Part shown: positions 2,518 to 27,865 of the stretch, one piece after another
How positions within the stretch are numbered: the stretch's first letter is position 1
How the letters are laid out: every line of letters begins with the position of its first letter
Origin: Ardenticatenales bacterium
GTDB taxonomy: Bacteria > Chloroflexota > Anaerolineae > Epilineales > Epilineaceae
Reading direction: 5' to 3'
Assembly: GCA_020853525.1 (NCBI GenBank)
Contig: JADYYS010000056.1
Location: 62,001 to 126,000, forward strand
Length of the DNA stretch: 64,000 nt
The notes under the pieces: generated by a model
Database searches by the model: none
Seen by the model: only the letters and a program-made list of their open reading frames with translations
Told to the model about the DNA's origin: nothing
Translations under genes and position numbers: made by a program

Positions 2518-4431
<1,914 letters not shown>

Positions 4432-5107: not shown

Positions 5108-5953
5108 ATGGCCGATCCGCAGCAGCCGATCGTCGTGAAGACCGTCGTGTACATCACGCACACCGACCCGGCCACGGGCGAGGCGCGCCTCGTCGTCTTC
5201 GACCACGTCGACCACCCCGCCGCCGGCACGCAGGTGCCCGCCGGCACGGTCGGCGACGGCGAGGACGTCGCCGACGGGGCGCTGCGCGAAGCGTACGAGG
5301 AGACCGGGCTGGAGGGCATTCGCCTCGTCGACGCGCTGGGCACCGAGGACGTGGACCTGCGGCCGTACGGTGTCGAAGCGACGGCGAGGCGGCACTTCTT
5401 CCACGCGGTCGTCGATGCGGTCGACGGCGCTCACCGCGAGCGCTGGCAACACGTCGAGGCCCATCGCTCGGACGGCGGCCCGCCCGTGACGTTCGATCTG
5501 CGCTGGGCGCCGCTTGCCTCGCCCCCCGCGCTCGCGGGCGAACTCGGCGCGCATCTGTCGATCGTCCAGGCCGCGCTCGTGCCCGACGTCGCCGCGGTCG
5601 TCGCCGCCGAGCGCGCATGGGTGGAGGCGCACCGCCGGATGGACGTCGAGGCGATCGCCCGGCTCATGGCCGACGACTACAGCTCGGTGCGCGAGGACGG
5701 TGCCGTCTGGGGGCGGGCGGAAACGCTGGCGGCGTACGTGCCGGGCGCGCGGCACTGGGACGAGGCGGAGAGCGATCGGTACCACGTGCGCGTGAACGGC
5801 GACACGGCGGTGCTGGTGGCGCGGTGGCGGGCGCGGGGGGTGAACAACGGTCAGGCGTTCGATTACGCGGCGCGATTCACGGCGGTGTACGTGCGGCGGG
5901 AAGGGCGATGGCTGTTGCAGCACGATCACTCGACGGCGATGGGCGGGGGGTAG
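5108..5953 (+). CDS. Nudix hydrolase fused to a SnoaL/DUF4440-like domain
   Basis: This is a 281-residue two-domain protein. Residues about 10-140 are a Nudix domain with a complete Nudix box matching G-x5-E-x7-RE-x2-EE-x-G (GTVGDGEDV then REAYEETGL). Such enzymes hydrolyse a nucleoside diphosphate linked to another group. Residues about 165-280 resemble the cone-shaped SnoaL/DUF4440 fold (ERAWVEAHRRMD, VNGDTAVLVARW, EGRWLLQHDHST), which is often a small-molecule pocket or a ketosteroid-isomerase-like enzyme. The ATG at 5108 is preceded by GGGGAGAAGG; an in-frame ATG at 5003 is less likely. The substrate is unknown, and the pairing suggests one protein processing and binding a related compound. 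Confidence 0.8.
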   Translation: MADPQQPIVVKTVVYITHTDPATGEARLVVFDHVDHPAAGTQVPAGTVGDGEDVADGALREAYEETGLEGIRLVDALGTEDVDLRPYGVEATARRHFFHAVVDAVDGAHRERWQHVEAHRSDGGPPVTFDLRWAPLASPPALAGELGAHLSIVQAALVPDVAAVVAAERAWVEAHRRMDVEAIARLMADDYSSVREDGAVWGRAETLAAYVPGARHWDEAESDRYHVRVNGDTAVLVARWRARGVNNGQAFDYAARFTAVYVRREGRWLLQHDHSTAMGGG

Positions 5954-6076
5954 CTCAGATCACCAGTGGGTTGTGCGTGGAGAACGGTGGCCTGGCTTCA
6001 CGGCTCGGCTCCATGGTCCGCGATCGACCGGCTAGCGAGTGAATCCGGACGAATCGCGACGGATTTCGGCTTGCCG

Positions 6077-6103
6077 TGTCGATTTCGCGTCGCGCCGCTC
6101 GAC
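6077..6103 (+). promoter_or_regulatory. candidate ECF42-type promoter ahead of the DGPF gene
   Basis: TGTCGA (6077-6082) and CGAC (6100-6103) are 17 nt apart, about 75 nt before the DGPF start codon. From memory of published work on ECF42 sigma factors in Streptomyces, their targets are DGPF genes with a TGTCGA -35 element and a CGA/TC -10 element; this site fits. The cognate sigma gene lies immediately downstream of the DGPF gene. Confidence 0.5.
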
Positions 6104-6178
6104 GCTTGTGTAGAGGCCGGTCTTGCGGGCCTCGCAACCAGAGCTCGAACCAGCAACCACTGACAAGGAGATCGAACG

Positions 6179-6607
6179 ATGCGCGTCATGGTGATCGTGA
6201 AGGCCACCGCGGATTCCGAAGCCGGCGTCATGCCGAGCGAGCAGCTGATGACCGAGATGGGCGCCTACAACGAGCAGCTCGTGAACGCCGGCGTCATGCT
6301 GGCCGGCGAGGGCCTCCACCCGAGCGCGAAGGGCGCCCGGGTCCAGTTCTCGGGCACGAACCGCACCGTTGTCGACGGCCCGTTCGCCGAGACCAAGGAG
6401 CTCGTCGCGGGCTTCTGGCTCTGGCAGGTGCGGTCGATGGACGAGGCGATCGAGTGGGTGAAGCGCTGCCCGAACCCGATGCTCGGCCCCTCCGAGATCG
6501 AGATCCGGCCGGTGTTCGAGGCCGAGGACTTCGGCGCCGAGTACACGCCGGAGCTGCGGGAGCAGGAGGATCGGCTGCGGGCGAAGGTGGAGTCGCAGCA
6601 GGCGTAG
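6179..6607 (+). CDS. YCII/DGPF-domain protein
   Basis: This 142-residue single-domain protein has the family hallmark DGPFAETKE around residue 63 and a ferredoxin-like alpha/beta pattern (MRVMVIVKAT at the start). DGPF proteins (PF03795) are small soluble proteins of uncertain biochemistry, usually encoded beside and controlled by ECF42 sigma factors; that is the arrangement here. AAGGAG at 6164-6169 supports the start. It forms a functional pair with the sigma factor gene, separated by 118 nt, and has an ECF42-like promoter upstream. Confidence 0.9.
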   Translation: MRVMVIVKATADSEAGVMPSEQLMTEMGAYNEQLVNAGVMLAGEGLHPSAKGARVQFSGTNRTVVDGPFAETKELVAGFWLWQVRSMDEAIEWVKRCPNPMLGPSEIEIRPVFEAEDFGAEYTPELREQEDRLRAKVESQQA

Positions 6608-6688
6608 CTCCTCGTCCACGTCGGCGATGACGGCGCCGTGCACGCGTGAGCAGGAGTCGGCAGCTGTCGATGCCGATCGTTGGTGATG

Positions 6689-6717
6689 TTGGTAACGGCA
6701 TGAACGCTTGTTATGAT
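6689..6717 (+). promoter_or_regulatory. sigma-70-like promoter giving a leaderless ECF42 transcript
   Basis: TTGGTA (6689-6694) and TATGAT (6712-6717) are 17 nt apart. Transcription would begin about 6724, only 2 nt before the ATG at 6726, so the mRNA is predicted to be leaderless. No Shine-Dalgarno sequence is present, consistent with this. Confidence 0.5.
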
Positions 6718-6725
6718 CGCCCGCC

Positions 6726-8084
6726 ATGCCGATGTCAGCCACCCACCGCGCGATCGACGCCGTCTGGCGGATCGAGTCCGCTCGCCTGATCGCCGGCCTC
6801 ACCCGGATCGTGCGCGATGTCGGCGCAGCCGAGGACCTCGCCCAGGACGCGCTCGTCGCAGCGCTCAAGCAGTGGCCTGAGTCGGGCGTCCCGGACAACC
6901 CGGGCGCCTGGCTCATGGCCGCGGCCAAGCACCGGGCGATCGACCAGTTCCGGCGCGATGCGCGTCTCGGTGCCAAGTACGCCTCGATCGCGCACGTGCT
7001 CGAAGTCGACGACGCCGGCCACGTGGCCGTGATGAGCGGCGACGCCGCGTCGGCAGACGATGTCGCGACGATCGACGCCGCCCTCGACGACGACGTCGGC
7101 GACGACCTGCTGCGGCTCGTCTTCATCGCCTGCCACCCCGTCCTGTCCACGGACGCGCGCGTCGTGCTCACGCTCCGCCTCATCGGCGGTCTGACGACGG
7201 ACGAGATCGCCCGCGCGTTCCTCGTCCCGGAGGCGACCGTCGCCCAGCGGATCGTGCGGGCCAAGCGCACCCTAGCCGAAGCCCGCGTCCCGTTCGAGGT
7301 CCCGCGCGGCGCCGATCGCGCCGCCCGACTGTCGTCCGTGCTCGCGGTCGTCTACCTGATCTTCAATGAGGGCTACTCGGCCACCGCCGGCGACGACTGG
7401 CTCCGGCCGGCGCTGTGCGACGAAGCGCTCCGCCTCGCCCGCATCCTGGCCGGCCTCGCGCCCGGCGAGCCCGAAGTGCACGGTCTCGTCGCCCTCCTCG
7501 AGATCCAGGCGTCCCGCGCCCACGCCCGCGTCGGCCCGTCCGGCGAGCCGATCCTCCTCCTCGACCAGAACCGCGCACGCTGGGACCCGCTGCTGATCCG
7601 CCGCGGCCTGGCAGCCCTCGACCGCGCGGTAGCGCTCGCCGTCGCGCAGGGCGGCGCGCTCGGCCCGTACGCGCTGCAGGCCGCGATCGCCGCCTGCCAT
7701 GCCCGGGCGCGCACCGCCGCGGCGACGGACTGGCCTCGCATCGCGGCGCTGTACGACGCGCTCGCCCAGGTCGCGCCGTCCCCGGTCGTCGAGCTGAACC
7801 GCGCCGTCGCCGTGGCGATGGCGTTCGGGCCGGCGGCGGGCCTCGCGATCGTCGAGACGCTCGTCGCGGAGCCGGCGCTCAAGGGCTACCATCTGTTGCC
7901 AAGCGTGCGGGGCGACCTGCTGGCCAAGCTCGGGCGCTTCGACGAGGCGCGCGCCGAGTTCGAGCGGGCGGCGGGGATGACGCGCAACGGGCGGGAGCGG
8001 GCGTTGTTGCTGGGGCGGGCGGGGGAGGTGGCTGCGCTGGCACTGAAGGCGCATTCGGTGGGGGACAAGGAGGGGACTACATGA
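6726..8084 (+). CDS. ECF42-group RNA polymerase sigma factor with long C-terminal extension
   Basis: The protein has 452 residues. Sigma region 2 is near residues 25-80 (DVGAAEDLAQDALVAALKQW). Region 4 is near 155-185 (TTDEIARAFLVPEATVAQRI), with a helix-turn-helix for the -35 element. The remaining about 270 residues form the helical, TPR-like extension typical of ECF42 (formerly the YlaC/SigJ-like DUF6596 group), including NEGYSA. In this group the extension, rather than a separate anti-sigma factor, is thought to control activity. No anti-sigma gene is adjacent. The DGPF gene directly upstream is the expected target. The start at 6726 is chosen because a -10 box lies 9 nt upstream; an ATG two codons later is also possible. 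Confidence 0.92.
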   Translation: MPMSATHRAIDAVWRIESARLIAGLTRIVRDVGAAEDLAQDALVAALKQWPESGVPDNPGAWLMAAAKHRAIDQFRRDARLGAKYASIAHVLEVDDAGHVAVMSGDAASADDVATIDAALDDDVGDDLLRLVFIACHPVLSTDARVVLTLRLIGGLTTDEIARAFLVPEATVAQRIVRAKRTLAEARVPFEVPRGADRAARLSSVLAVVYLIFNEGYSATAGDDWLRPALCDEALRLARILAGLAPGEPEVHGLVALLEIQASRAHARVGPSGEPILLLDQNRARWDPLLIRRGLAALDRAVALAVAQGGALGPYALQAAIAACHARARTAAATDWPRIAALYDALAQVAPSPVVELNRAVAVAMAFGPAAGLAIVETLVAEPALKGYHLLPSVRGDLLAKLGRFDEARAEFERAAGMTRNGRERALLLGRAGEVAALALKAHSVGDKEGTT

Positions 8085-8186
8085 AGGCGGGCAAGGTGTA
8101 AGGCTGACCTTCGCACGGTTTCGGTTGTCATCCGCTCCGAGCAGGAACATCATCACGCTCAACTTTACGAACACGGAGCGGTCACC

Positions 8187-8261
8187 ATGAGGGAGCTTCT
8201 TGGTGCGCGGTCATGTCAGACCGCCCCAATTTGGTCCGCGGATGCCCGAATCCTGCCGTGA
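8187..8261 (+). CDS. possible 24-residue leader peptide before DUF4258
   Basis: ATG at 8187 follows a GGAGCGG ribosome site and opens a 24-codon frame. Its TGA overlaps the GTG at 8258 of the next gene (GTGA). The product has no recognisable motif. The arrangement suggests translational coupling to the DUF4258 gene, but such a short frame can also arise by chance. Confidence 0.3.
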   Translation: MRELLGARSCQTAPIWSADARILP

Positions 8262-8527
8262 GGCAATTGCGCTGGACTCCGCACGCGCTCGACGGGCTCG
8301 CCGAGCGCGAGGTCGATCAGTCGGAAGTGGAGTGGACCATCCGCCAGCCGACGGAGAGAGCCCCTGGCCGCAACGACCGGACCGTGTTCCTGCGCCGGTA
8401 TCACGATCGGATCCTTGGCCAGGAAATGCTGCTCGTGGTCGTTGCAGAGGAACGAGCCGAGGAGATTGTGATCATTACTGTGTACAAGACCTCGAAGTTC
8501 AACAGGTACCTCAGGGGAGCGGACTGA
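8258..8527 (+). CDS. DUF4258 protein, candidate toxin of a toxin-antitoxin-like pair
   Basis: This small basic protein (89 residues from GTG 8258) has the pattern RWTPHALDGLAEREV near the N-terminus, typical of DUF4258, and a C-terminal strand IITVYKTSKFNRYL. DUF4258 is distantly related to the RelE/BrnT-like RNase folds and is often found next to small acidic partners. A start at 8213 (104 residues) is also possible, but homologues usually begin close to the RWTPHA motif. The stop overlaps the start of the DUF2283 gene by one base (TGATG), so the two are translated together. The RNase role is inference only. Confidence 0.7.
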   Translation: MRQLRWTPHALDGLAEREVDQSEVEWTIRQPTERAPGRNDRTVFLRRYHDRILGQEMLLVVVAEERAEEIVIITVYKTSKFNRYLRGAD

Positions 8528-8721
8528 TGCTGATCCGATACGATACAGAGACGGACACGATGGTGATCACGCTGCGCGAGGAGCGAATCAAGGAGAGCGA
8601 CGAGGTGCGGCCCGGCGTCATCGCCGATTTCGGCTACGACGGCGGTATCGTTCGCTTCGAGATCCTCGACGCCTCAAAGCACGTCCAGAACCCCTTGAGC
8701 GTGACGCTGGCGACCGCGTAG
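8527..8721 (+). CDS. DUF2283 protein, candidate partner of DUF4258
   Basis: This protein of 64 residues begins MLIRYDTETDTMVITL and contains VRPGVIADFGYDGGIVRFEIL, the two-strand-pair pattern of DUF2283. It is acidic, in contrast to its basic neighbour. Families DUF4258 and DUF2283 are repeatedly neighbours in bacterial genomes, and the pair has been listed among predicted toxin-antitoxin modules. Here the genes overlap by one base. No DNA-binding domain is visible, so autoregulation, if any, would need the complex. Confidence 0.8.
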   Translation: MLIRYDTETDTMVITLREERIKESDEVRPGVIADFGYDGGIVRFEILDASKHVQNPLSVTLATA

Positions 8722-8770
8722 TCAGCGGCAGAGCCGACGTCATCCAACACTGAACACCTCAGAGGTTGAC

Positions 8771-9637
8771 ATGTCCCATCCATCGAATGCGCATTGGCAC
8801 TCGCTCACCATCCTGAGAGCCATCGTTGGCGTTGTCGTCGTTGCCGGTTTGTCGGCGCTTGCGGTGCACGCCTTCTTTCAGCTGCCGGACCCTGAGTCGG
8901 CGACCGGGATCGCGCGTCCGCTTCAATTGGGTGGCACGCTCGCCATCTGGGGCCTGAGCATTCCGCTGCTCGCCGCGATCCGTGCATCGGTCTGGGTGTT
9001 TCCCGCCGTCCTCTTGCTGGCCGTCGTCGCGAACGTGCTGGCGCGATCCGCAACTGTCGCACGCGGCGCATCCATGCGCCTTGCCGTTGCGGGCGCGACC
9101 GTCGCGCTCGCCCTCCTGCCGGTCACCACGCTGCGTCCCCGGCTACCGGTTGCGGCCGCGGCGGGCGCCGAGATGATCTGGGTGACGGAACCGAGCCTCG
9201 TCGAGCGCGCGCACTACGGCTCGATGGAGCGCCTGGACGGGACGCCGTGTACGTTCACCATGCTCGAATGGGATGCCGCTGGCAGGCTCTACTACCAGTC
9301 GGACTGCGTCAGGCGCACGAGCATCGGTGGAATCGTCTGGGGAGTCGAGGGCGGCTGGTCGCCCGGTTCCCGCCGCCGAGTCTGGATGTTCGATCCGGCA
9401 GCCGGTCGCGCCCCGCAACCCGTGGCAGCGTCCCCCGGACGGCTCGTGCGACAGCCGTCCCGGATGGCGAATCGCCAGCTCGTGCATGCGGCGGGGCTGC
9501 AGGGGCGATCGGGCCTCGAAGTGCAGCCGATCTTGGGCTCGGACCACGGATTGCAGTCGCCGGACGGCCGTTGGACGGCGCGCGTGGTGACGATGTTCTA
9601 CGAGCCCGAGCACGTGGTCCTCGTGCGTCTGAAGTAA
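8771..9637 (+). CDS. hypothetical membrane protein with extracytoplasmic C-terminal domain
   Basis: I do not recognise the family. The 288-residue product has four hydrophobic segments in its first half (about residues 14-36, 52-74, 76-94 and 105-120). The C-terminal half is soluble, with paired Cys (GTPCTFTML and YYQSDCVR), suggesting a disulfide outside the membrane. The TAA stop overlaps the ATG of the next gene (TAATG), so it appears to be the first gene of the tightly packed block 8771-12964. Confidence 0.65.
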   Translation: MSHPSNAHWHSLTILRAIVGVVVVAGLSALAVHAFFQLPDPESATGIARPLQLGGTLAIWGLSIPLLAAIRASVWVFPAVLLLAVVANVLARSATVARGASMRLAVAGATVALALLPVTTLRPRLPVAAAAGAEMIWVTEPSLVERAHYGSMERLDGTPCTFTMLEWDAAGRLYYQSDCVRRTSIGGIVWGVEGGWSPGSRRRVWMFDPAAGRAPQPVAASPGRLVRQPSRMANRQLVHAAGLQGRSGLEVQPILGSDHGLQSPDGRWTARVVTMFYEPEHVVLVRLK

Positions 9638-10740
9638 TGCCCGAGCCTCCGCCAACCTTCACCGCCACCCGAGGGCGTCCCGCAATGTCCTGGCAATCCC
9701 GTGTCGCCCCCGTCGCCGAAGCCGCCCTGCACAACCGCGCCGTCCCCGGCCTCGTCCTCGCCGTCGCGCGCGGCCACGACGTGCCCGAGAACCTCGTGCT
9801 CGGCACCGACGCCGCCGGCCGCGCCCTGTCGACGGACTCGCTGTTTCCGGTGGCCTCGATCACCAAGCTGGCGACGGCGCTGGCGGTCCTGCGCCTCGCG
9901 GCCGATGGGGTTGTCGAGCTCGACGACGCACTCGCCAAGCACCTGCCCGATGCCGCCGCCGCCCGCGACGGCGTCACGCTTCGCGCCATGCTCTGCCACA
10001 CGGCCGGCCTGCCGATCGACCTCGCGCCCGAGGCCGCCTCGTACGCGCCGGGGCTCGACTGGCCGGAGCTGGCGCGGGCGTGCCTGACGACGCCTCTGTC
10101 GGCTCCGCCCGGCAGTGACGTCCAATACAGCAACATCGGCTCCGGCCTGCTGGCTATCGTCGTCGAGCGGCGGACCGGACTGCCGATCGGTGAGGCGCTC
10201 GACGCCCTCGTGCTGTCGCCGCTCGGCATCGAGGGAACCCTCGGCAGCGAGCCGCCGCGCCCGCCGGCCGTGCTGATGGGCGAACTCGGCGACCATGCCG
10301 GCACCGCGCTCGAGCCTTTCAACTCGCCCTTCTGGCGATCGCTCGGCATGCCGTGGGGCGGCCTGCTGACGACCGCCGGCGGTGCGCTGGCGCTCGTGCG
10401 CGCGTTCGCCGGCGTGCCCGCCGGCTTCCTGCCCGCCGACGTCCTCGCCGACGCCGTCCGCGACCAGACCGGCGGGCTCGGCGGCGGCCTCTTCGGCGCG
10501 CTGCGATGGCCGCGCTGTCCGTGGGGCCTCGGCGTCGAGCTGCGCGGAGACAAGTCGCCGCACTGGGCGCCAGCGGAGGCATCACCCGACTCATTCGGCC
10601 ACGTCGGCGCCAGCGGCTGTCTGGCCTGGTGCGACCCGGCGGCGGATGTGGCCTGGGCGATCCTGGGCACGCGCACCTTCGAGCGGTGGTGGCGGGCGTG
10701 GCCGGCGATCGGTGCGGCGGTGTTGGCGAGCGAAGGATGA
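9637..10740 (+). CDS. serine hydrolase of the beta-lactamase (class C / AmpC-like) family
   Basis: The protein has 367 residues from ATG 9637, with an in-frame ATG at 9685 as an alternative. It carries the penicillin-binding fold motifs SITK (about residues 74-77, the serine nucleophile and general-base lysine), YSN (about 164-166) and HVGAS near the C-terminus in place of the third K-T-G-like box. Such proteins hydrolyse or transfer esters and amides; many are peptidases or esterases, and resistance function cannot be assumed. No signal peptide is seen, so the protein is probably cytoplasmic. It overlaps both neighbours by 1 and 4 bases. Confidence 0.88.
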   Translation: MPEPPPTFTATRGRPAMSWQSRVAPVAEAALHNRAVPGLVLAVARGHDVPENLVLGTDAAGRALSTDSLFPVASITKLATALAVLRLAADGVVELDDALAKHLPDAAAARDGVTLRAMLCHTAGLPIDLAPEAASYAPGLDWPELARACLTTPLSAPPGSDVQYSNIGSGLLAIVVERRTGLPIGEALDALVLSPLGIEGTLGSEPPRPPAVLMGELGDHAGTALEPFNSPFWRSLGMPWGGLLTTAGGALALVRAFAGVPAGFLPADVLADAVRDQTGGLGGGLFGALRWPRCPWGLGVELRGDKSPHWAPAEASPDSFGHVGASGCLAWCDPAADVAWAILGTRTFERWWRAWPAIGAAVLASEG

Positions 10741-11747
10741 GGACCGCCCCACTGTCCCTCGACGACCTCGCCCCGTGGGCCGACCTCCTGTCCGCCGCCT
10801 TCGATCGCCCCACCCCGGACATGGTGCGCGTCCTCGCACGCCAGCACGCGACCTTCCCGGTGGTGGCGTGGGGGACATGGGACGGCGACGTCCTGATCGC
10901 GCAATACAGCTGCCTGATGCGTGCGCTCCGAGTCCCGGGACGCGACGCCACATTGCCGGTCGGGATGAGCGTGAACCTGGCCGTGCACCCAGCGTACCGC
11001 GGGCAGGGGCTCGTGCGCCCGCTGGCGGATCGCGTATACGACGAGGTGCGCGCGCGCGGCGCCGTCGCCGGCGTCGGCTTTTCGAACGCCGCCGGCGTGC
11101 AGGTCGATCGGCGCAGCCGCGGCTACGGTTACCGCGTCGTCGGGCGGCTGCGGCCGGCGGTGGCGCTGCTCCTCGGGCCGGTACGGTCCCCCTTCGCGCC
11201 GCACGTGCTGACGCTGACCGATGCCTGGCCGGCGCAACCGCCCGTGCCCCGGGACGCCGGCCTCATCCGCTTCGCCGATGCCGTCGACGTGGTTGCCTAT
11301 CGGGAAGGCGGGGATCGCGACGGCGGGGATGAGACTGTCGGCGACCGCAGCTACGTCGGCGTCGCTGGCGACGCAGAGCCGCCCGCCCGCCGCTACGCCT
11401 TCGGCGTGTGGCGCGAACGCGGGGTGACGCGCGGCGCCGTCGCGTTCCGCTGGGAGCGTTGGGGTCGCGTGCGCGGCGCGACGCTGCTCGCTGCCGAGGG
11501 CGACGACTTGCCGGCGCTCATCGCCCGGTGGTCCGCGTCGCTCCGACGTCGACCGGTGCTCATCGTCCGCGTCCTGGCGACACCGGCCTCACCCATCTGG
11601 TGGGCGCTGCGCCGCGTCGCGTGGACGGTGACGCTGCCGGTCAGCCGCACGCCGTACTATCTGACCGTCAAGCCGCTCGGCGACGACACCCCGGCGGAGC
11701 TGTTCGACTACGCACGCTGGGACTGCATGGGCGGGGACGTGTTGTGA
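10737..11747 (+). CDS. GNAT-family acetyltransferase
   Basis: The start overlaps the previous stop (ATGA). The 336-residue protein has a GNAT core near residues 50-140 with the acetyl-CoA-binding segment VHPAYRGQGLVRPLA. A second half (about 200-336) looks like a degenerate GNAT or Eis-like accessory domain. Substrate is unknown. It sits between a serine hydrolase and a CoA-transferase with 4-base overlaps on both sides, so all three are likely one translational unit. Confidence 0.8.
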   Translation: MRTAPLSLDDLAPWADLLSAAFDRPTPDMVRVLARQHATFPVVAWGTWDGDVLIAQYSCLMRALRVPGRDATLPVGMSVNLAVHPAYRGQGLVRPLADRVYDEVRARGAVAGVGFSNAAGVQVDRRSRGYGYRVVGRLRPAVALLLGPVRSPFAPHVLTLTDAWPAQPPVPRDAGLIRFADAVDVVAYREGGDRDGGDETVGDRSYVGVAGDAEPPARRYAFGVWRERGVTRGAVAFRWERWGRVRGATLLAAEGDDLPALIARWSASLRRRPVLIVRVLATPASPIWWALRRVAWTVTLPVSRTPYYLTVKPLGDDTPAELFDYARWDCMGGDVL

Positions 11748-23348: not shown

Positions 23349-26300
23349 TTACGGGAGGGAGAGGGCTAGGCGGAAGCCAAGGTTATCGCCCTGCATCGCC
23401 GGGAGCTCGCCAATCCGACGCCATGTTTGCAGCAAGTGCTGATCGTTCCCCCAACACCCTCCGCGGATAACACAGTGGTCGATTTGCCGTCGTTGCACCT
23501 TAATGTGTATGCGATTTGAGGTGTTCTCATTTGCCATCGATTGTGTGTCCATTGATCTTAATGCGGATCGAGTCCATTCATATACATTGCCCGTGAGATC
23601 TGCAATCCCTTCTGGTGTATGACCTTGCGGGAAGATACCGATCGGTGTTGTTTGCCTAACGTGGGTCTCCACCGAGTTACAGCGATCAAGACCGAATTCA
23701 TTGCCCCAGGCATACAGCCGACCATCGGAACCACGCGCAGCCACTTCCCACTCAATCTCCGTGGGAGGCCTGAACGATTGATCGGTTTGGGCAGACAGCC
23801 ATGCGCAATATGCAATGATCTCATGCCAACTCACACCAATAACTGGTTGAAGGCGCGTGCGAAAACCAACATCGTTCCATCGGAACGGCAATCGAATTGG
23901 CCGGTCAGGTGATCGGGCGGAAACGTGCTCGAGGAACTCGTTCTCATCGAGCGTCAACAATACTTGCCAGCGCTCGTAGAACGGTTGCGTCACATAGCCC
24001 TTTCGATGAAGGTCGTGAAGCAGGGTTGGATTGTCGCGAAAAGCCCTGTTGAACTGCTCCTCCTTTGTTCGTGCCGGCGCGCCTGTACCTTCCCCACGAT
24101 GCCACGCCTTGGCTTCATCGGACACCCACCACCGCTCGTCCTCATAGCCACCGCTGTCGATGAAGCACGCATACTCCGCGTTTGTCACGGGGAAGCGCCC
24201 CAGTGCAAACGCAGGCATGTCCACCGTTTCGCGCGGCAGAGCCTCGTCGCCGGTCGGATCGCCGATGCCGATCTCATACCGGCCGGCCGACAGCGCCACC
24301 ATGATTGGGCGGATAAACCTGCCGTTCGGTCCCTCCTGCGGCTCGAACTGTGGATCGCCGACCTCACCCAACCGTAGGCCGGCCTCCATGCGCGCCCGGA
24401 GGTCGGCGGTCGGATCCTCGCGCCGGAGGCGCAGCGCCTCGGCCACGCGCGTTCGGGTGGTCGGGTCGATCGTTGCCTCGCCCGTGGCGATGCACCTCCC
24501 TGCAAGCGGGAGATTGACCTCCAGCAGTGCTCCGACGAAAGCGTCCGGACCGGCGGACATCGGGCAGGCCATCACCATGACCTCGTCCCAGCCACTCCCC
24601 GGCAAGAGCGGCAGCGGATCGGCCGGTGACAGTTCGGCGATCGCCGCCCGCAGCGGAACGGTTACCGCGTCAGCGCGCCACTCCGTCTCGGCTGGCTGGA
24701 AATCGGGAAGTCGCGCCGCGTGGCGGGCAGCGAAGTATTCCTGCAGCAGTTGGTGGATGAACACGATCTCGTCGTGCGCCGTGACCTCCGCCAGCAGGCC
24801 CAGAGCCTCCGCGACCTCGAGGACGAGCAGGCTGTCCGGACGATCGACGAGCCGGCACGCCGTGTCGACGTCGACGACCACTTGGGACGCCTCCGCATCG
24901 GCCGTGCGTGCATGGATGCCGAACGCCAGGCGGCCGAGCGCCTCGAACAGCCGGCCGCGCTCCGGCAACGTGTACGGGGAGTCCCATGGCCCACCCTGAA
25001 CGATCTGGCGATGGTCACGCTCCGTGAGCAGGTCGTTTGGGCCGAGCACCGGGTTGACGTTGCTGATCTCCCGCTCGAGCGCCAGACGCACGAACCCCGT
25101 GAAGAGGGCGGCCCGACCGCGCGGCACCGCACCGATTGCCTCGACCTGATCGACGAGCATTCTCAGCAGATAGGGCGTGCATAGCGCCTCAAACTGTGGA
25201 GTGAACTTCAGCACGTCCCACAACGACGCGGCGTGCTGGGAACAGTATCGCTCGAGGAATGCCTGGATGCGCTCGCTATCCAGTGGCTCGATGACGACTT
25301 GCGGTACGCGCAGCGTCGGGCTGGAGAGTGGTGCGCTGTAGTCCAGGCTGCGACAGCTGAACACCGCGCGGTTGCCCGGGCGTCCGCTCAGAATCACGTG
25401 CACATAGTGACGCCAAGCGATGATGAGACGCCGGAACTCGGCGGCATCCTGATGCGGGATCTCGTTCAGACCATCGAGCAGCAGGACGAGCCGGCCCTGG
25501 CGCCTGAATTCGCCGAGCGGCGGCAGGGAGGGGAAGCGATCGCGCCAGCGCGCCTCGAACCATCGCTCTATCGCGTCCGGCTCGGGTTCTTCGCCCGACA
25601 AGCGGAACTGGTTAAGCGGCACGAACCACGTCACGACGTCGGTTTCGCCCCGCAGCGCGCGTGTGGCCAGCGTGAGCTCGAGGTGGCGCAACAGGGTGCT
25701 CTTCCCGCTCCCCGGCGCGCCAAGCACGACGAGCGCCTGGTGGCCGGTGGTCTCTAGGACGTCGGCGAGGTGGTCGAAGCGCTGCGGTTCCGCCAGCCAG
25801 CGCTGTCCGCGAGCTTCCTCGCCGAGGTCGACGAGGAGAGACAGCGAGACGAAGCGCCGATCGAGCTGATACTGCGGCAGCGACCACTCCGCCAGCCGCG
25901 CGGCCCGATAAGCGGTGAGGTTCTCAGGTACCCGATGGGCCAGCAGGTGAGCATCGGCTTGGCTGAGGACAACTGCTCCACCGGCGGCACTGCGAATGCC
26001 CTGCACCAACCGGGCAACGACCGCCGCGGCATCGGGCGCGGCGCGGATAGTCGGCGATTCATCACCCGCAGCGATGACCACCGGGTTGTCCCGTGACGCA
26101 GCATCCGCCACCCGCAGAGGCTCCTGCACGCGCGGCAGGCCATCGACGACGATCTCGAAGATGTGCTCGCTGAATCGCAGGTCGCGCAACGAGTGGTGTC
26201 CGTGATCTACCAGCGTCAGATCATCGCCGATCCGGCCGCGGATCATCTGCTGGGCAACGAGGGAGGTAAGGATCTGCCCGCCATGACCCGCGCCGAGCAG

Positions 26301-26672
26301 CCGCGCCGTCTGGTTGAGCGTCGGCCCGAACAGGTCGCCGCCACGCTCGATCGCGGGGCCGACGTGGATGGCCATCCGCACGCGGACTGGTCCGATGCGC
26401 GGATCCAGCGCCTGCCAAGACTCAGCCTGCAGAGCGCGCTGCGCCGCTGCCGCCGCCTCGGCTGCCGCCCTCGCGTCACCGAAGACGCTGCAGAAGCCGT
26501 CGCCAACGGTCTTGAACACCTCACCGCCATACGACTCAATTGCGTCACGTACGATCGCGTCATGCCGGTCGAGGGCGCGCGCCATGGCCTCGGCCAAGTG
26601 CTCCCACAGACCGGTGCTGCCTTCAATATCGGTGAACAGGAAGGCGTAGGTGGTGCTCTGGAACGGCGACAT
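23349..26672 (-). CDS. class III nucleotidyl cyclase - NACHT NTPase - FGE/SUMF1-like fusion protein
   Basis: The protein has 1107 residues. Residues 8-175 are a class III cyclase domain with both metal aspartates (FLFTDIEGST and VGDGF), the purine-pocket-region Lys in VFKTV, and the transition-state pair in LNQTARL, so catalysis looks possible. Residues about 310-650 are a NACHT STAND NTPase: Walker A GAPGSGKST (318-326), Walker B LVLLLDGLNE (395-404), and the downstream FIHQLLQEYFAARHA helix typical of NACHT proteins. Residues about 780-1107 are a formylglycine-generating-enzyme-like fold (FALGRFPVTNAEY, RPPTEIEWEVAARG, NVYEWT, VIRGGCWGND, GFRLA). The paired catalytic Cys of true FGE are absent, suggesting a binding role. 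The ATG at 26672 is used because ATG 26756 would run over the divergent gene's start. Confidence 0.9.
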   Translation of the reverse strand: MSPFQSTTYAFLFTDIEGSTGLWEHLAEAMARALDRHDAIVRDAIESYGGEVFKTVGDGFCSVFGDARAAAEAAAAAQRALQAESWQALDPRIGPVRVRMAIHVGPAIERGGDLFGPTLNQTARLLGAGHGGQILTSLVAQQMIRGRIGDDLTLVDHGHHSLRDLRFSEHIFEIVVDGLPRVQEPLRVADAASRDNPVVIAAGDESPTIRAAPDAAAVVARLVQGIRSAAGGAVVLSQADAHLLAHRVPENLTAYRAARLAEWSLPQYQLDRRFVSLSLLVDLGEEARGQRWLAEPQRFDHLADVLETTGHQALVVLGAPGSGKSTLLRHLELTLATRALRGETDVVTWFVPLNQFRLSGEEPEPDAIERWFEARWRDRFPSLPPLGEFRRQGRLVLLLDGLNEIPHQDAAEFRRLIIAWRHYVHVILSGRPGNRAVFSCRSLDYSAPLSSPTLRVPQVVIEPLDSERIQAFLERYCSQHAASLWDVLKFTPQFEALCTPYLLRMLVDQVEAIGAVPRGRAALFTGFVRLALEREISNVNPVLGPNDLLTERDHRQIVQGGPWDSPYTLPERGRLFEALGRLAFGIHARTADAEASQVVVDVDTACRLVDRPDSLLVLEVAEALGLLAEVTAHDEIVFIHQLLQEYFAARHAARLPDFQPAETEWRADAVTVPLRAAIAELSPADPLPLLPGSGWDEVMVMACPMSAGPDAFVGALLEVNLPLAGRCIATGEATIDPTTRTRVAEALRLRREDPTADLRARMEAGLRLGEVGDPQFEPQEGPNGRFIRPIMVALSAGRYEIGIGDPTGDEALPRETVDMPAFALGRFPVTNAEYACFIDSGGYEDERWWVSDEAKAWHRGEGTGAPARTKEEQFNRAFRDNPTLLHDLHRKGYVTQPFYERWQVLLTLDENEFLEHVSARSPDRPIRLPFRWNDVGFRTRLQPVIGVSWHEIIAYCAWLSAQTDQSFRPPTEIEWEVAARGSDGRLYAWGNEFGLDRCNSVETHVRQTTPIGIFPQGHTPEGIADLTGNVYEWTRSALRSMDTQSMANENTSNRIHIKVQRRQIDHCVIRGGCWGNDQHLLQTWRRIGELPAMQGDNLGFRLALSLP

Positions 26673-26680
26673 GCGGCGGC

Positions 26681-26710
26681 TTGCCTGGCCGGGGAACCGT
26701 GGAATACTAA
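26681..26710 (+). promoter_or_regulatory. candidate promoter for the 26747 gene
   Basis: TTGCCT (26681-26686) and TACTAA (26705-26710) are 18 nt apart, about 37 nt before the GTG start, leaving room for the AGAGAGGA ribosome site at 26732-26739. Confidence 0.35.
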
Positions 26711-26727
26711 ACGGAATCGCAGTCAGC

Positions 26728-26756
26728 ACTATAGAGAGGATCCCTTGTGAAGACAA
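26728..26756 (-). promoter_or_regulatory. candidate promoter for the cyclase-NACHT-FGE gene
   Basis: Read on the minus strand, TTGTCT (26756-26751) and TATAGT (26733-26728) are exactly 17 nt apart, giving a leader of about 50 nt to ATG 26672. The -35 box overlaps the first codons of the divergent gene and the two promoters interleave, so the genes may be reciprocally regulated. Confidence 0.45.
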
Positions 26757-27865
26757 AGCCGCCGCGATTCGCCCTAGCCGCTGTCATGGTGGGCTGTGCC
26801 GGCCTTGCGGTCGGCGGAATGACCATCGTCCTTGTCGATGTGCCTGAGTCCATCGCCAGTAGTGGACCAGCCCACATCCAAAGAGAAGTGCGAACGCTGG
26901 GAGCCGGCCCTACCTACTCGAACTACACGCTTCAAAACAATACCTTGGGCAGAGTTGATGAGTGGGCGTTTGAGTTCACGGGTTTGGACAGCGCAAATAT
27001 ACTGCAAGACTATACGAACACAGGATGGAACGCCTCCCGGTCTTCTAGTGGCAAGACCGCGGTAATCACCTGGACTGGTAGCAGTGCACCCATCAATAAG
27101 GGTGACTTTGGACACTTCGGCTACCAATTGACGTCTGATGTGTGGAATGTAGGCGCCGACAAGGGGACATGGCGGAGCGTCGGTACGGGTGCACTCACAA
27201 GTTACAACGCAGCGACGCTAAACAACTTCCACGTGCAACCACTCGTCACCGTAACGCCAAGTGCAACACCGACGTCTGGCCCTGGACCGGTTTCACTGTC
27301 GCTGCATCAGAGAAACCCGCTCAGGCGGCTGACCTTGGAAGGAACACAACCACGGCGCGCGGCGCAACGGGATGGGCCAGGTTATCCGCCGTGGGTCACA
27401 CTCTCGATTACTAACACGTGGACTGCGCCGGAGTCCGGAGATCCCAGAGCGCAAACGATTCTCATCCAGCGCTATGTAAAGATTCTGCCGTCTACTCAGG
27501 AAGTCAGGCTGGAGTCGCTGATTGAAGACGATCCACTCGTAGCGAACGCGCTACTGATCGACCCGACACCGCGCCCACTCGCTCTGAACGAAGGGGTAGA
27601 CACGTTCGTTGGGCCTCTGACCCACGAGTCGCGCGGCGTGCTTGTGTATTACAGGGCCAAGCCGGCCACGCCGCCGGCAGGCGGCGACAGAAACGAGTAC
27701 GCATACACGGCCTTCCTGGTCTTCGAGGTGCTACCGGATGAAACAAGGGTGAGTCCAACCGTGACTCCTACGCCCGCCCGCCCCCGCCCCTTCCTCCCAT
27801 TCCCCTACGCCGCCCACAACCACATTCTCCGCGCCCCCACCGCCATCGCCCCCGCCCGCCCTTAG
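26747..27865 (+). CDS. secreted or membrane-anchored protein of unknown function, low GC
   Basis: I do not recognise the family. GTG 26747 follows AGAGAGGA. Of 372 residues, 8-32 are a signal peptide or anchor (FALAAVMVGCAGLAVGGMT). Residues about 45-165 are a beta-rich domain with many Asn/Thr/Ser (YSNYTLQNNTLGRVDEWAFE). A short linker TVTPSATPTSGPGP leads to a second domain (about 190-345), and the end has TVTPTPARPRPFLPFPYAA, the Thr/Pro-plus-LP tail of other surface proteins here. Base composition is clearly lower in GC than neighbouring genes, with codons such as AAT, ATA and ACA, suggesting recent acquisition. It is divergent from the cyclase-NACHT-FGE gene, with 74 nt between the starts. 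Confidence 0.7.
   Translation: MKTKPPRFALAAVMVGCAGLAVGGMTIVLVDVPESIASSGPAHIQREVRTLGAGPTYSNYTLQNNTLGRVDEWAFEFTGLDSANILQDYTNTGWNASRSSSGKTAVITWTGSSAPINKGDFGHFGYQLTSDVWNVGADKGTWRSVGTGALTSYNAATLNNFHVQPLVTVTPSATPTSGPGPVSLSLHQRNPLRRLTLEGTQPRRAAQRDGPGYPPWVTLSITNTWTAPESGDPRAQTILIQRYVKILPSTQEVRLESLIEDDPLVANALLIDPTPRPLALNEGVDTFVGPLTHESRGVLVYYRAKPATPPAGGDRNEYAYTAFLVFEVLPDETRVSPTVTPTPARPRPFLPFPYAAHNHILRAPTAIAPARP

What the first reader, a model, noticed from the sequence alone, without database searches (positions are those of the whole stretch)
23349..26672. Cyclase-NACHT-FGE fusion: a candidate STAND sensor that makes a cyclic nucleotide
Seen: a class III cyclase domain with both metal aspartates and the Asn/Arg transition-state pair, a NACHT domain with intact Walker A and B, and a FGE-like C-terminus lacking the catalytic Cys pair. 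Known: STAND NTPases oligomerise on ligand binding and activate an attached effector; Pycsar defence uses class III cyclases; FGE-like folds serve as ligand-binding C-type-lectin modules. Inference: the C-terminus senses a ligand, NACHT assembles, and the cyclase produces a nucleotide signal. This would be a single-protein sensor-to-messenger system, possibly for defence or cell-cell conflict.
Basis: partly seen in the sequence, partly recalled or inferred. Interest (0 to 1): 0.8.

Follow-up and report, generated by a model that had tools for sequence, protein, structure and literature searches.

The report
NLR-like lectin receptor with cyclase output
A bacterium of the Anaerolineae class carries a one-gene, immune-receptor-like protein whose variable lectin end probably recognises something foreign and whose front end probably makes the messenger cAMP; the general receptor type is known, but a cyclase as its output appears not to have been described, and nothing here has been tested in the laboratory.

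Summary
Window 23352-26672(-) encodes an intact 1107-aa protein: class III cyclase (10-145), NACHT (314-478) and FGE/C-type-lectin domain (790-1103). The cyclase keeps both metal Asp, the Lys/Asp adenine pair and the Asn/Arg pair, so the likely product is cAMP. The predicted C-terminal domain matches a Treponema variable protein (Z 25.9) and has no FGE Cys pair.

Comparative evidence supports a STAND receptor with exchangeable outputs. In related genomes the same NACHT-FGE core carries cyclase, TIR+cyclase, an HTH-like domain, TCAD9, EAD8, EAD8+TIR, DUF4062 or HNH at its N-terminus. Relatives with this core are targets of diversity-generating retroelements (DGRs), and the 16 codons such a DGR randomises are the most variable positions of the whole core, also in copies without a DGR. 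The window's own genome has no DGR, only a CRISPR-type reverse transcriptase.

This is a new variant of a known kind: STAND-FGS conflict systems (Kaur et al. 2021) and NACHT-CLec sensors (Dore et al. 2024), neither of which lists a cyclase as output in the passages read. Pycsar membership is not supported. Ligand, cyclase activity, downstream target and defence role are untested.

The parts
23349..26672 (-). Whole gene: cyclase-NACHT-FGE protein, 1107 aa, ATG at 26672, stop 23349-23351
26145..26651 (-). Class III nucleotidyl cyclase domain (about residues 8-176); metal D15 and D58, adenine-specifying K54 and D113, transition-state N120 and R124
   Evidence: Pfam Guanylate_cyc; Ma1120 alignment; residue table; fold matches to Ma1120, VIA-align Z about 23.9
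25737..26030 (-). Linker and helical region before the NACHT domain (about residues 215-312), shared with paralogues that carry other N-termini
   Evidence: alignment of 7 own-genome paralogues, motif AEWS..Y.LD.RFV.LSLL.D.GE
25239..25736 (-). NACHT NTPase domain (residues 313-478)
   Evidence: Pfam NACHT; Foldseek matches to NOD2, NLRP3 and NLRC4
25695..25721 (-). Walker A GAPGSGKST (residues 318-326)
   Evidence: sequence; G-P-G-S-G-K-S-T invariant in the seven own-genome paralogues
25455..25487 (-). Walker B region VLLLDGLNEIP (residues 396-406)
   Evidence: sequence; LLLD.LNE.P invariant in the seven paralogues
24351..25238 (-). Helical region after the NACHT domain (residues 479-774) with the H-Q-x-x-Q-E-Y-F-A-A motif at 640-649
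   Evidence: invariant columns; predicted helices
23355..24314 (-). FGE / C-type-lectin domain (residues 787-1106), predicted ligand sensor, no catalytic Cys pair
   Evidence: Pfam; Treponema variable protein 2y3c, Z 25.9 over 212 residues
23370..23465 (-). Segment colinear with DGR variable repeats of relatives (residues 1070-1101); hypervariable codons 1075-1080, 1087-1090, 1092-1093, 1095-1098
   Evidence: TR/VR of G019; entropy 3.20 bits against 1.41 for the other core columns, rank 1 of 823 placements

Best explanation
The protein is a cytosolic NLR-like receptor of the STAND-FGS type. Its C-terminal FGE/C-type-lectin domain binds a ligand, probably from an invader or competitor, through a hypervariable face. 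Ligand binding releases the ADP-bound NACHT switch, which exchanges nucleotide and oligomerises. Assembly brings the N-terminal class III cyclase domains together as catalytically competent dimers, which convert ATP to cAMP (or another cNMP); the messenger then acts through a receptor encoded elsewhere in the genome and triggers a protective or growth-arrest response. Shown here: intact domains and catalytic residues, exchange of N-terminal modules on one core, hypervariability of the C-terminal face at DGR positions, and real DGRs on related cores. Inferred: ligand binding, oligomerisation, cyclase activation, cAMP as product, and the defence role.
For: Domains and structure model. All six catalytic and substrate residues are present in P0001 and in 12 of 15 aligned relatives; the K and D are the positions changed in the Ma1120 KDA-to-EGY mutant structures. 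The same core carries a cyclase (own genome x3, G037, G069), TIR+cyclase (L084, L086, L213, L215), a helical HTH-like domain (P0004-P0007), TCAD9 (L218), EAD8 (L220), EAD8+TIR (L092, a contig-end fragment), DUF4062 (L090) or HNH (L091). On a core tree the module labels need 8 changes, and well-supported branches alone force at least two for cyclase and for HTH. The three genomes of the family show 13, 15 and 23 matches to this protein, mostly NACHT-FGE proteins. Template/variable repeats with 15 of 15 (G019) and 15 of 16 (G196) mismatches at template A lie at the 3' ends of NACHT-FGE genes. The randomised codons are the most variable core positions in the family. Kaur et al. 2021 (PMC8195603) and Dore et al. 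2024 (PMC10907252) predict an invader-sensing role for STAND-FGS/CLec proteins.
Against: No activity data. The window's genome has no DGR; its only RVT_1 match is a reverse transcriptase beside cas1 and cas2, and the variable segment has no template copy in the genome. The gene does not sit in a defence island. No dedicated cNMP receptor lies next to it; cNMP-binding genes lie on other contigs than the cyclase-NACHT-FGE genes in the two sister genomes. One TIR-cyclase relative has lost key cyclase residues and two others have altered substrate residues, so a cyclase domain need not always be an active output. Hypervariable surface positions could also arise by ordinary divergence of paralogues.
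Confidence: 0.6

Rival explanations
1. It is a physiological signal-transduction regulator, not a defence protein: the lectin domain binds a nutrient or cell-surface glycan, NACHT acts as a MalT-like switch, and the cAMP controls transcription, development or behaviour.
For: Four own-genome paralogues carry a helical HTH-like N-terminus in place of the cyclase. A paralogue (P0003) lies beside an ECF sigma factor gene and a cNMP-binding-domain gene. Cyclase domains of the same type sit on ATPase-TPR proteins and on two nSTAND1-WD40 proteins of the same genome.
Against: N-termini of the same core include TIR, TCAD9, EAD8 and HNH, domains known mainly from conflict systems. DGR diversification of relatives and hypervariable ligand positions do not fit a constant nutrient ligand. 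Copy number is high and patchy.
Confidence: 0.25
2. The cyclase domain is not the output: it is a nucleotide-binding or dimerisation module, and another activity (TIR in relatives, or recruitment of a partner) carries the effect.
For: The TIR-cyclase protein L213 has lost the metal Asp, Lys and Asp (E/R/D/A), and L214 and L222 have changed substrate residues. Kaur et al. 2020 (PMC7159879) report inactive cNMP cyclases fused to vWA components of ternary systems.
Against: P0001 and 12 of 15 relatives retain all six residues, and P0001 has no other candidate effector domain.
Confidence: 0.15
3. It is a Pycsar-type cyclase that makes cCMP or cUMP for a separate effector.
For: Weak matches to PADLOC PycC models (E 6e-7 and weaker).
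Against: The adenine-specifying Lys/Asp pair is present. The 15 solved matches are Ma1120-like and other cyclases, none of them named a Pycsar cyclase. No effector-like gene was recognised among the adjacent ORFs, and no neighbour is conserved across the family.
Confidence: 0.04
4. It is an FGE, EgtB or other non-haem metalloenzyme fused to regulatory domains.
For: Sequence and fold matches to FGE, EgtB, OvsA and ToxD.
Against: No Cys pair; the segment that holds it in FGE is hypervariable across the family. Scores lie far below the NCBIfam cut-offs for EgtB, SenA and OvoA. The FGE paralogue SUMF2 and a Treponema variable protein match about equally well.
Confidence: 0.02

Closest known systems
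STAND NTPase-FGS conflict systems (Kaur et al. 2021, PMC8195603)
   Same: Central NACHT, C-terminal FGE/FGS lectin-like domain, exchangeable N-terminal effectors or EADs, several copies per genome, DGR association in relatives.
   Different: The effectors listed in the passage read are TIR, DRHyd, calcineurin, caspase, trypsin, S/T/Y-kinase and FHA; a nucleotide cyclase is not among them. The paper mentions a cyclase only with iSTAND2 and in a TRADD-N/FGS/caspase protein of Gemmata.
DGR clade 5D NACHT-CLec antigen sensors (Dore et al. 2024, PMC10907252)
   Same: NACHT fused to a C-terminal CLec domain that DGRs diversify; filamentous Chloroflexi are among the hosts.
   Different: The word cyclase does not occur in that paper's main text; the window gene is not itself a DGR target and its genome has no DGR.
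Avs / bNACHT antiviral STANDs, including NCBIfam EruA
   Same: N-terminal effector, NACHT, C-terminal sensor layout.
   Different: Cyclase instead of a nuclease or other effector and lectin-like sensor instead of repeats; EruA matches are far below cut-off.
Cyclase-STAND regulators (cyclase-ATPase-TPR; cyclase-nSTAND1-WD40)
   Same: A class III cyclase of the same type in front of a STAND-like NTPase; two nSTAND1-WD40 proteins of this genome carry one.
   Different: Different NTPase clade and sensor (TPR or WD40), no lectin domain.
Pycsar
   Same: Class III cyclase in a suspected defence context.
   Different: Pycsar is a separate cyclase plus a separate effector (own knowledge); here cyclase, switch and sensor are one chain and substrate residues predict ATP.
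VMAP and iSTAND ternary systems (Kaur et al. 2020, PMC7159879)
   Same: cNMP cyclases and FGS domains both occur as modules; TCAD9 (ternary complex associated domain) sits on the same core here (L218).
   Different: Those are multi-gene systems with MoxR and vWA; none of these adjoin the window gene in a conserved way.

Membership tests
STAND-FGS conflict protein (Kaur 2021) | STAND NTPase with intact Walker A and B | tested here: met
STAND-FGS conflict protein (Kaur 2021) | C-terminal FGE/FGS C-type-lectin-fold domain | tested here: met
STAND-FGS conflict protein (Kaur 2021) | Exchangeable N-terminal effectors or EADs on the same core, several copies per genome | tested here: met
STAND-FGS conflict protein (Kaur 2021) | Frequent (not obligatory) DGR association | tested here: met
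   Met for related cores in G019 and G196, not for the window's own genome
STAND-FGS conflict protein (Kaur 2021) | Counter-invader function | not testable with these tools
   needs phage challenge
Class III nucleotidyl cyclase | Two metal Asp, Lys/Asp base-specifying pair, Asn/Arg transition-state pair | tested here: met
   D15, D58, K54, D113, N120, R124
Class III nucleotidyl cyclase | Catalytic activity | not testable with these tools
   needs enzyme assay
Pycsar | Adjacent separate effector gene responding to cCMP or cUMP | tested here: not met
   none recognised among adjacent ORFs; no conserved neighbour in the family
Pycsar | Pyrimidine-specific cyclase | tested here: inconclusive
   K54/D113 predict adenine; weak PycC model hit
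DGR target | Variable repeat with a template copy and a DGR reverse transcriptase in the genome | tested here: not met
   Only RVT_1 match lies beside cas1 and cas2; no template copy. Draft genome, 97% complete
Formylglycine-generating enzyme | Catalytic Cys pair | tested here: not met
   absent from the RGG...GFR segment
NCBIfam EruA antiphage NACHT protein | Score above curated cut-off (1000 bits) | tested here: not met
   27 bits for P0001

The most novel reading that the evidence does not exclude
A bacterial NLR whose antigen-binding lectin face derives from, or is shared with, a DGR-diversified receptor lineage and whose output is a diffusible second messenger (cAMP) made in the same polypeptide; in a sister genome the same receptors add a TIR domain, giving two nucleotide-processing outputs on one sensor.
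Probability: 0.4. Interest if true: 0.75.

Novelty: new variant of a known kind. Interest (0 to 1): 0.55.

Why it matters
If true, one gene contains the whole path from an evolvable antigen receptor to a diffusible messenger, which makes bacterial NLR signalling directly measurable (cAMP output) and modular (TIR, TCAD9, HNH and other modules on the same core). CLec/FGE sensors on STAND proteins had not been characterised experimentally according to Dore et al. 2024; a single-protein system of this kind would let ligands of such sensors be screened by cAMP read-out.

Tried and rejected
Looked for a DGR in the window's genome: the only RVT_1 match is a reverse transcriptase beside cas1 and cas2, and no template for the variable segment was found. 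A first TR/VR screen with strict BLAST settings found nothing; relaxed settings found clear A-specific pairs in relatives. Looked for a conserved partner gene: none across the family loci. Looked for a cNMP-binding gene by the cyclase copies: one beside P0003 only, none on the same contigs in sister genomes; with 6 such genes in 4.3 Mb one neighbour is weak evidence. Tried to identify the HTH-like N-terminus of the paralogues: a confident all-helical model but no PDB match at E below 0.001, so that name rests on an HTH-like sequence pattern only. First thought P0003's cyclase degenerate because Pfam matched only part of it; alignment shows all six residues intact. Verrucomicrobia loci L121 and L124 looked like the same architecture but read as kinase-cyclase-FGE proteins without NACHT. 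Plasmid records hold only partial matches. Papers joining NACHT, FGE-sulfatase and cyclase: none found in the library.

Full report
What is there. The minus-strand gene at 23349-26672 encodes an intact 1107-residue protein. Pfam places a class III cyclase at 10-145, a NACHT domain at 314-478 and an FGE-sulfatase domain at 790-1103, all above curated cut-offs. An AlphaFold2 model built on 25 sequences has mean pLDDT 85 and pTM 0.76. Its N-terminal part matches adenylyl cyclase Ma1120 (VIA-align Z about 23.9, 1.8 A over 160 residues); its middle matches NOD2, NLRP3 and NLRC4 by Foldseek; its C-terminus matches ToxD, EgtB, FGE and, at Z 25.9 over 212 residues, Treponema denticola variable protein 1, a DGR-diversified C-type lectin (that 2y3c is a DGR protein is general knowledge).

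Catalytic state. D15 and D58 (metals), K54 and D113 (base specificity) and N120 and R124 (transition state) are all present, also in both own-genome paralogues and in most relatives. K and D are residues changed in the Ma1120 'KDA to EGY' mutant structures, so ATP is the expected substrate. Three relatives depart: L213, a TIR-cyclase protein, has E/R/D/A and is probably inactive; L214 and L222 have D or A for K54 and G for D113 and may use another substrate or none. The FGE domain lacks the Cys pair of formylglycine-generating enzymes.

A receptor family with exchangeable outputs. The window's genome (4.27 Mb, 97% complete) holds three cyclase-NACHT-FGE genes, four genes with the same core behind an all-helical HTH-like domain, one such gene without NACHT and one without FGE. 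The two sister genomes in the family (one corresponds by contig to Anaerolineae MAG OFTM155, the other to MAG UCB3) hold further copies, including four that carry TIR plus cyclase and three with TCAD9. In the wider class the core appears with EAD8 plus TIR, DUF4062 or HNH, or with short N-termini. On a tree of the core the N-terminal labels need eight changes, and starred branches alone force at least two changes each for the cyclase and HTH-like labels; for example a fully supported group joins two cyclase proteins with an HTH-like one. Many other branches of that quick tree are open, so the exact number of swaps is unsure.

The C-terminus as an evolving sensor. In G019 a NACHT-FGE gene (41% identical to residues 448-1106) ends in a variable repeat whose 15 differences from a nearby template all lie at template adenines, with a reverse transcriptase next to it; G196 shows the same at two FGE genes (15 of 16 at A for one, about 93% at A for the other). 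The G019 repeat aligns without gaps to the C-terminal segment of the window protein from RGG to GFR. The 16 positions it randomises have a mean entropy of 3.20 bits across 22 family members against 1.41 for the remaining core columns, and of 823 placements of that pattern along the core the true one ranks first. None of these 22 was shown to be a DGR target, and the window's genome has no DGR. So this face is hypervariable in the family whether or not a retroelement drives it. That is what a ligand-recognition surface under changing selection would look like; ordinary paralogue divergence on a surface cannot be fully excluded.

Context. Neighbours are secreted or metabolic proteins: a vWA protein, a PLD-like protein, an NHL-repeat protein and a Zn peptidase. 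No neighbour is conserved across the family, which fits a stand-alone, one-gene system. The gene has GC3 0.75 against 0.83-0.91 for its paralogues, and the ORF beside it is also low (0.66), so this stretch may be a recent arrival. A paralogue, P0003, lies next to an ECF sigma gene and a cNMP-binding-domain gene, a lead and no more.

Mechanism. The best reading is: ligand binds the lectin face, NACHT exchanges nucleotide and assembles, cyclase domains pair and make cAMP, and a receptor elsewhere acts on it. Anatomy, residue conservation, module exchange and hypervariability are shown; every functional step is inferred from NLR, Avs and class III cyclase biology. The main rival is a physiological regulator with a cAMP output, favoured by the HTH-like paralogues and by cyclases on WD40- and TPR-type proteins, disfavoured by TIR, TCAD9, EAD8 and HNH on the same core.

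Known or new. Kaur et al. 2021 (PMC8195603) described STAND-FGS conflict systems with many effectors; the passage that lists them names no nucleotide cyclase, although the same paper links cNMP cyclases to iSTAND2 and a cyclase to a TRADD-N/FGS protein. Dore et al. 2024 (PMC10907252) proposed NACHT-CLec proteins as DGR-diversified antigen sensors and does not mention cyclases in its main text. Kaur et al. 2020 (PMC7159879) found cNMP cyclases as effectors of ternary systems. The window protein joins these known ideas in an arrangement I could not find described. I call it a new variant of a known kind. Searches of the phylum sample and of the genome collection found the full architecture only in this family, but coverage was not exhaustive and figures and supplements of the papers were not readable.

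Noticed in passing
L084:4136-8062(+), L086:4880-8809(+), L215, L213 (G037): TIR-cyclase-NACHT-FGE proteins: two nucleotide-processing modules on one receptor; in L213 the cyclase has lost its key residues while TIR remains.
   Followed up: partly
L109:1969-2096 and 3810-3937 (G019); L093:7209-7331, 9425-9550, 7497-7619 (G196): DGRs with A-specific template/variable repeats at the 3' ends of NACHT-FGE genes in Anaerolineae relatives.
   Followed up: yes
L108 and L114 (G069): DGRs in a sister genome diversify other FGE proteins, including a TIR-FGE protein (L114:363-3467); no A-specific match to the cyclase-NACHT-FGE genes of the same genome was seen.
   Followed up: partly
L035:9262-9942(+) and 9963-10751(-): An ECF sigma factor gene and a cNMP-binding-domain gene lie directly after the cyclase-NACHT-FGE paralogue P0003.
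   Followed up: partly
L045:359-4639(-) and 5217-9584(-): Two large nSTAND1-WD40 proteins in the same genome carry class III cyclase domains at their N-termini (about 50% identical to that of P0001): the same output on another STAND and sensor type.
   Followed up: partly
L218:406-15985 (G069): Three NACHT-FGE genes in a row; the N-terminus of the one scanned matches TCAD9 / APH-like phosphotransferase and the other two resemble it.
   Followed up: partly
window 23349-27865: The gene and the divergent ORF 26747-27865 have low GC3 (0.75 and 0.66) in a window where most neighbours have 0.86-0.93: possible recent horizontal arrival.
   Followed up: partly
L042:1520-4851(-): Reverse transcriptase gene beside cas1 and cas2, suggesting RNA spacer acquisition in this genome.
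   Followed up: no
L041:4497-6326(+) and L038:3683-5587(+): Reduced paralogues: HTH-like domain plus FGE without NACHT, and HTH-like domain plus NACHT without FGE.
   Followed up: no
L121:5083-9456 and L124:5083-8622 (Verrucomicrobia): Kinase-cyclase-FGE proteins without NACHT: another use of the cyclase and FGE modules together.
   Followed up: no
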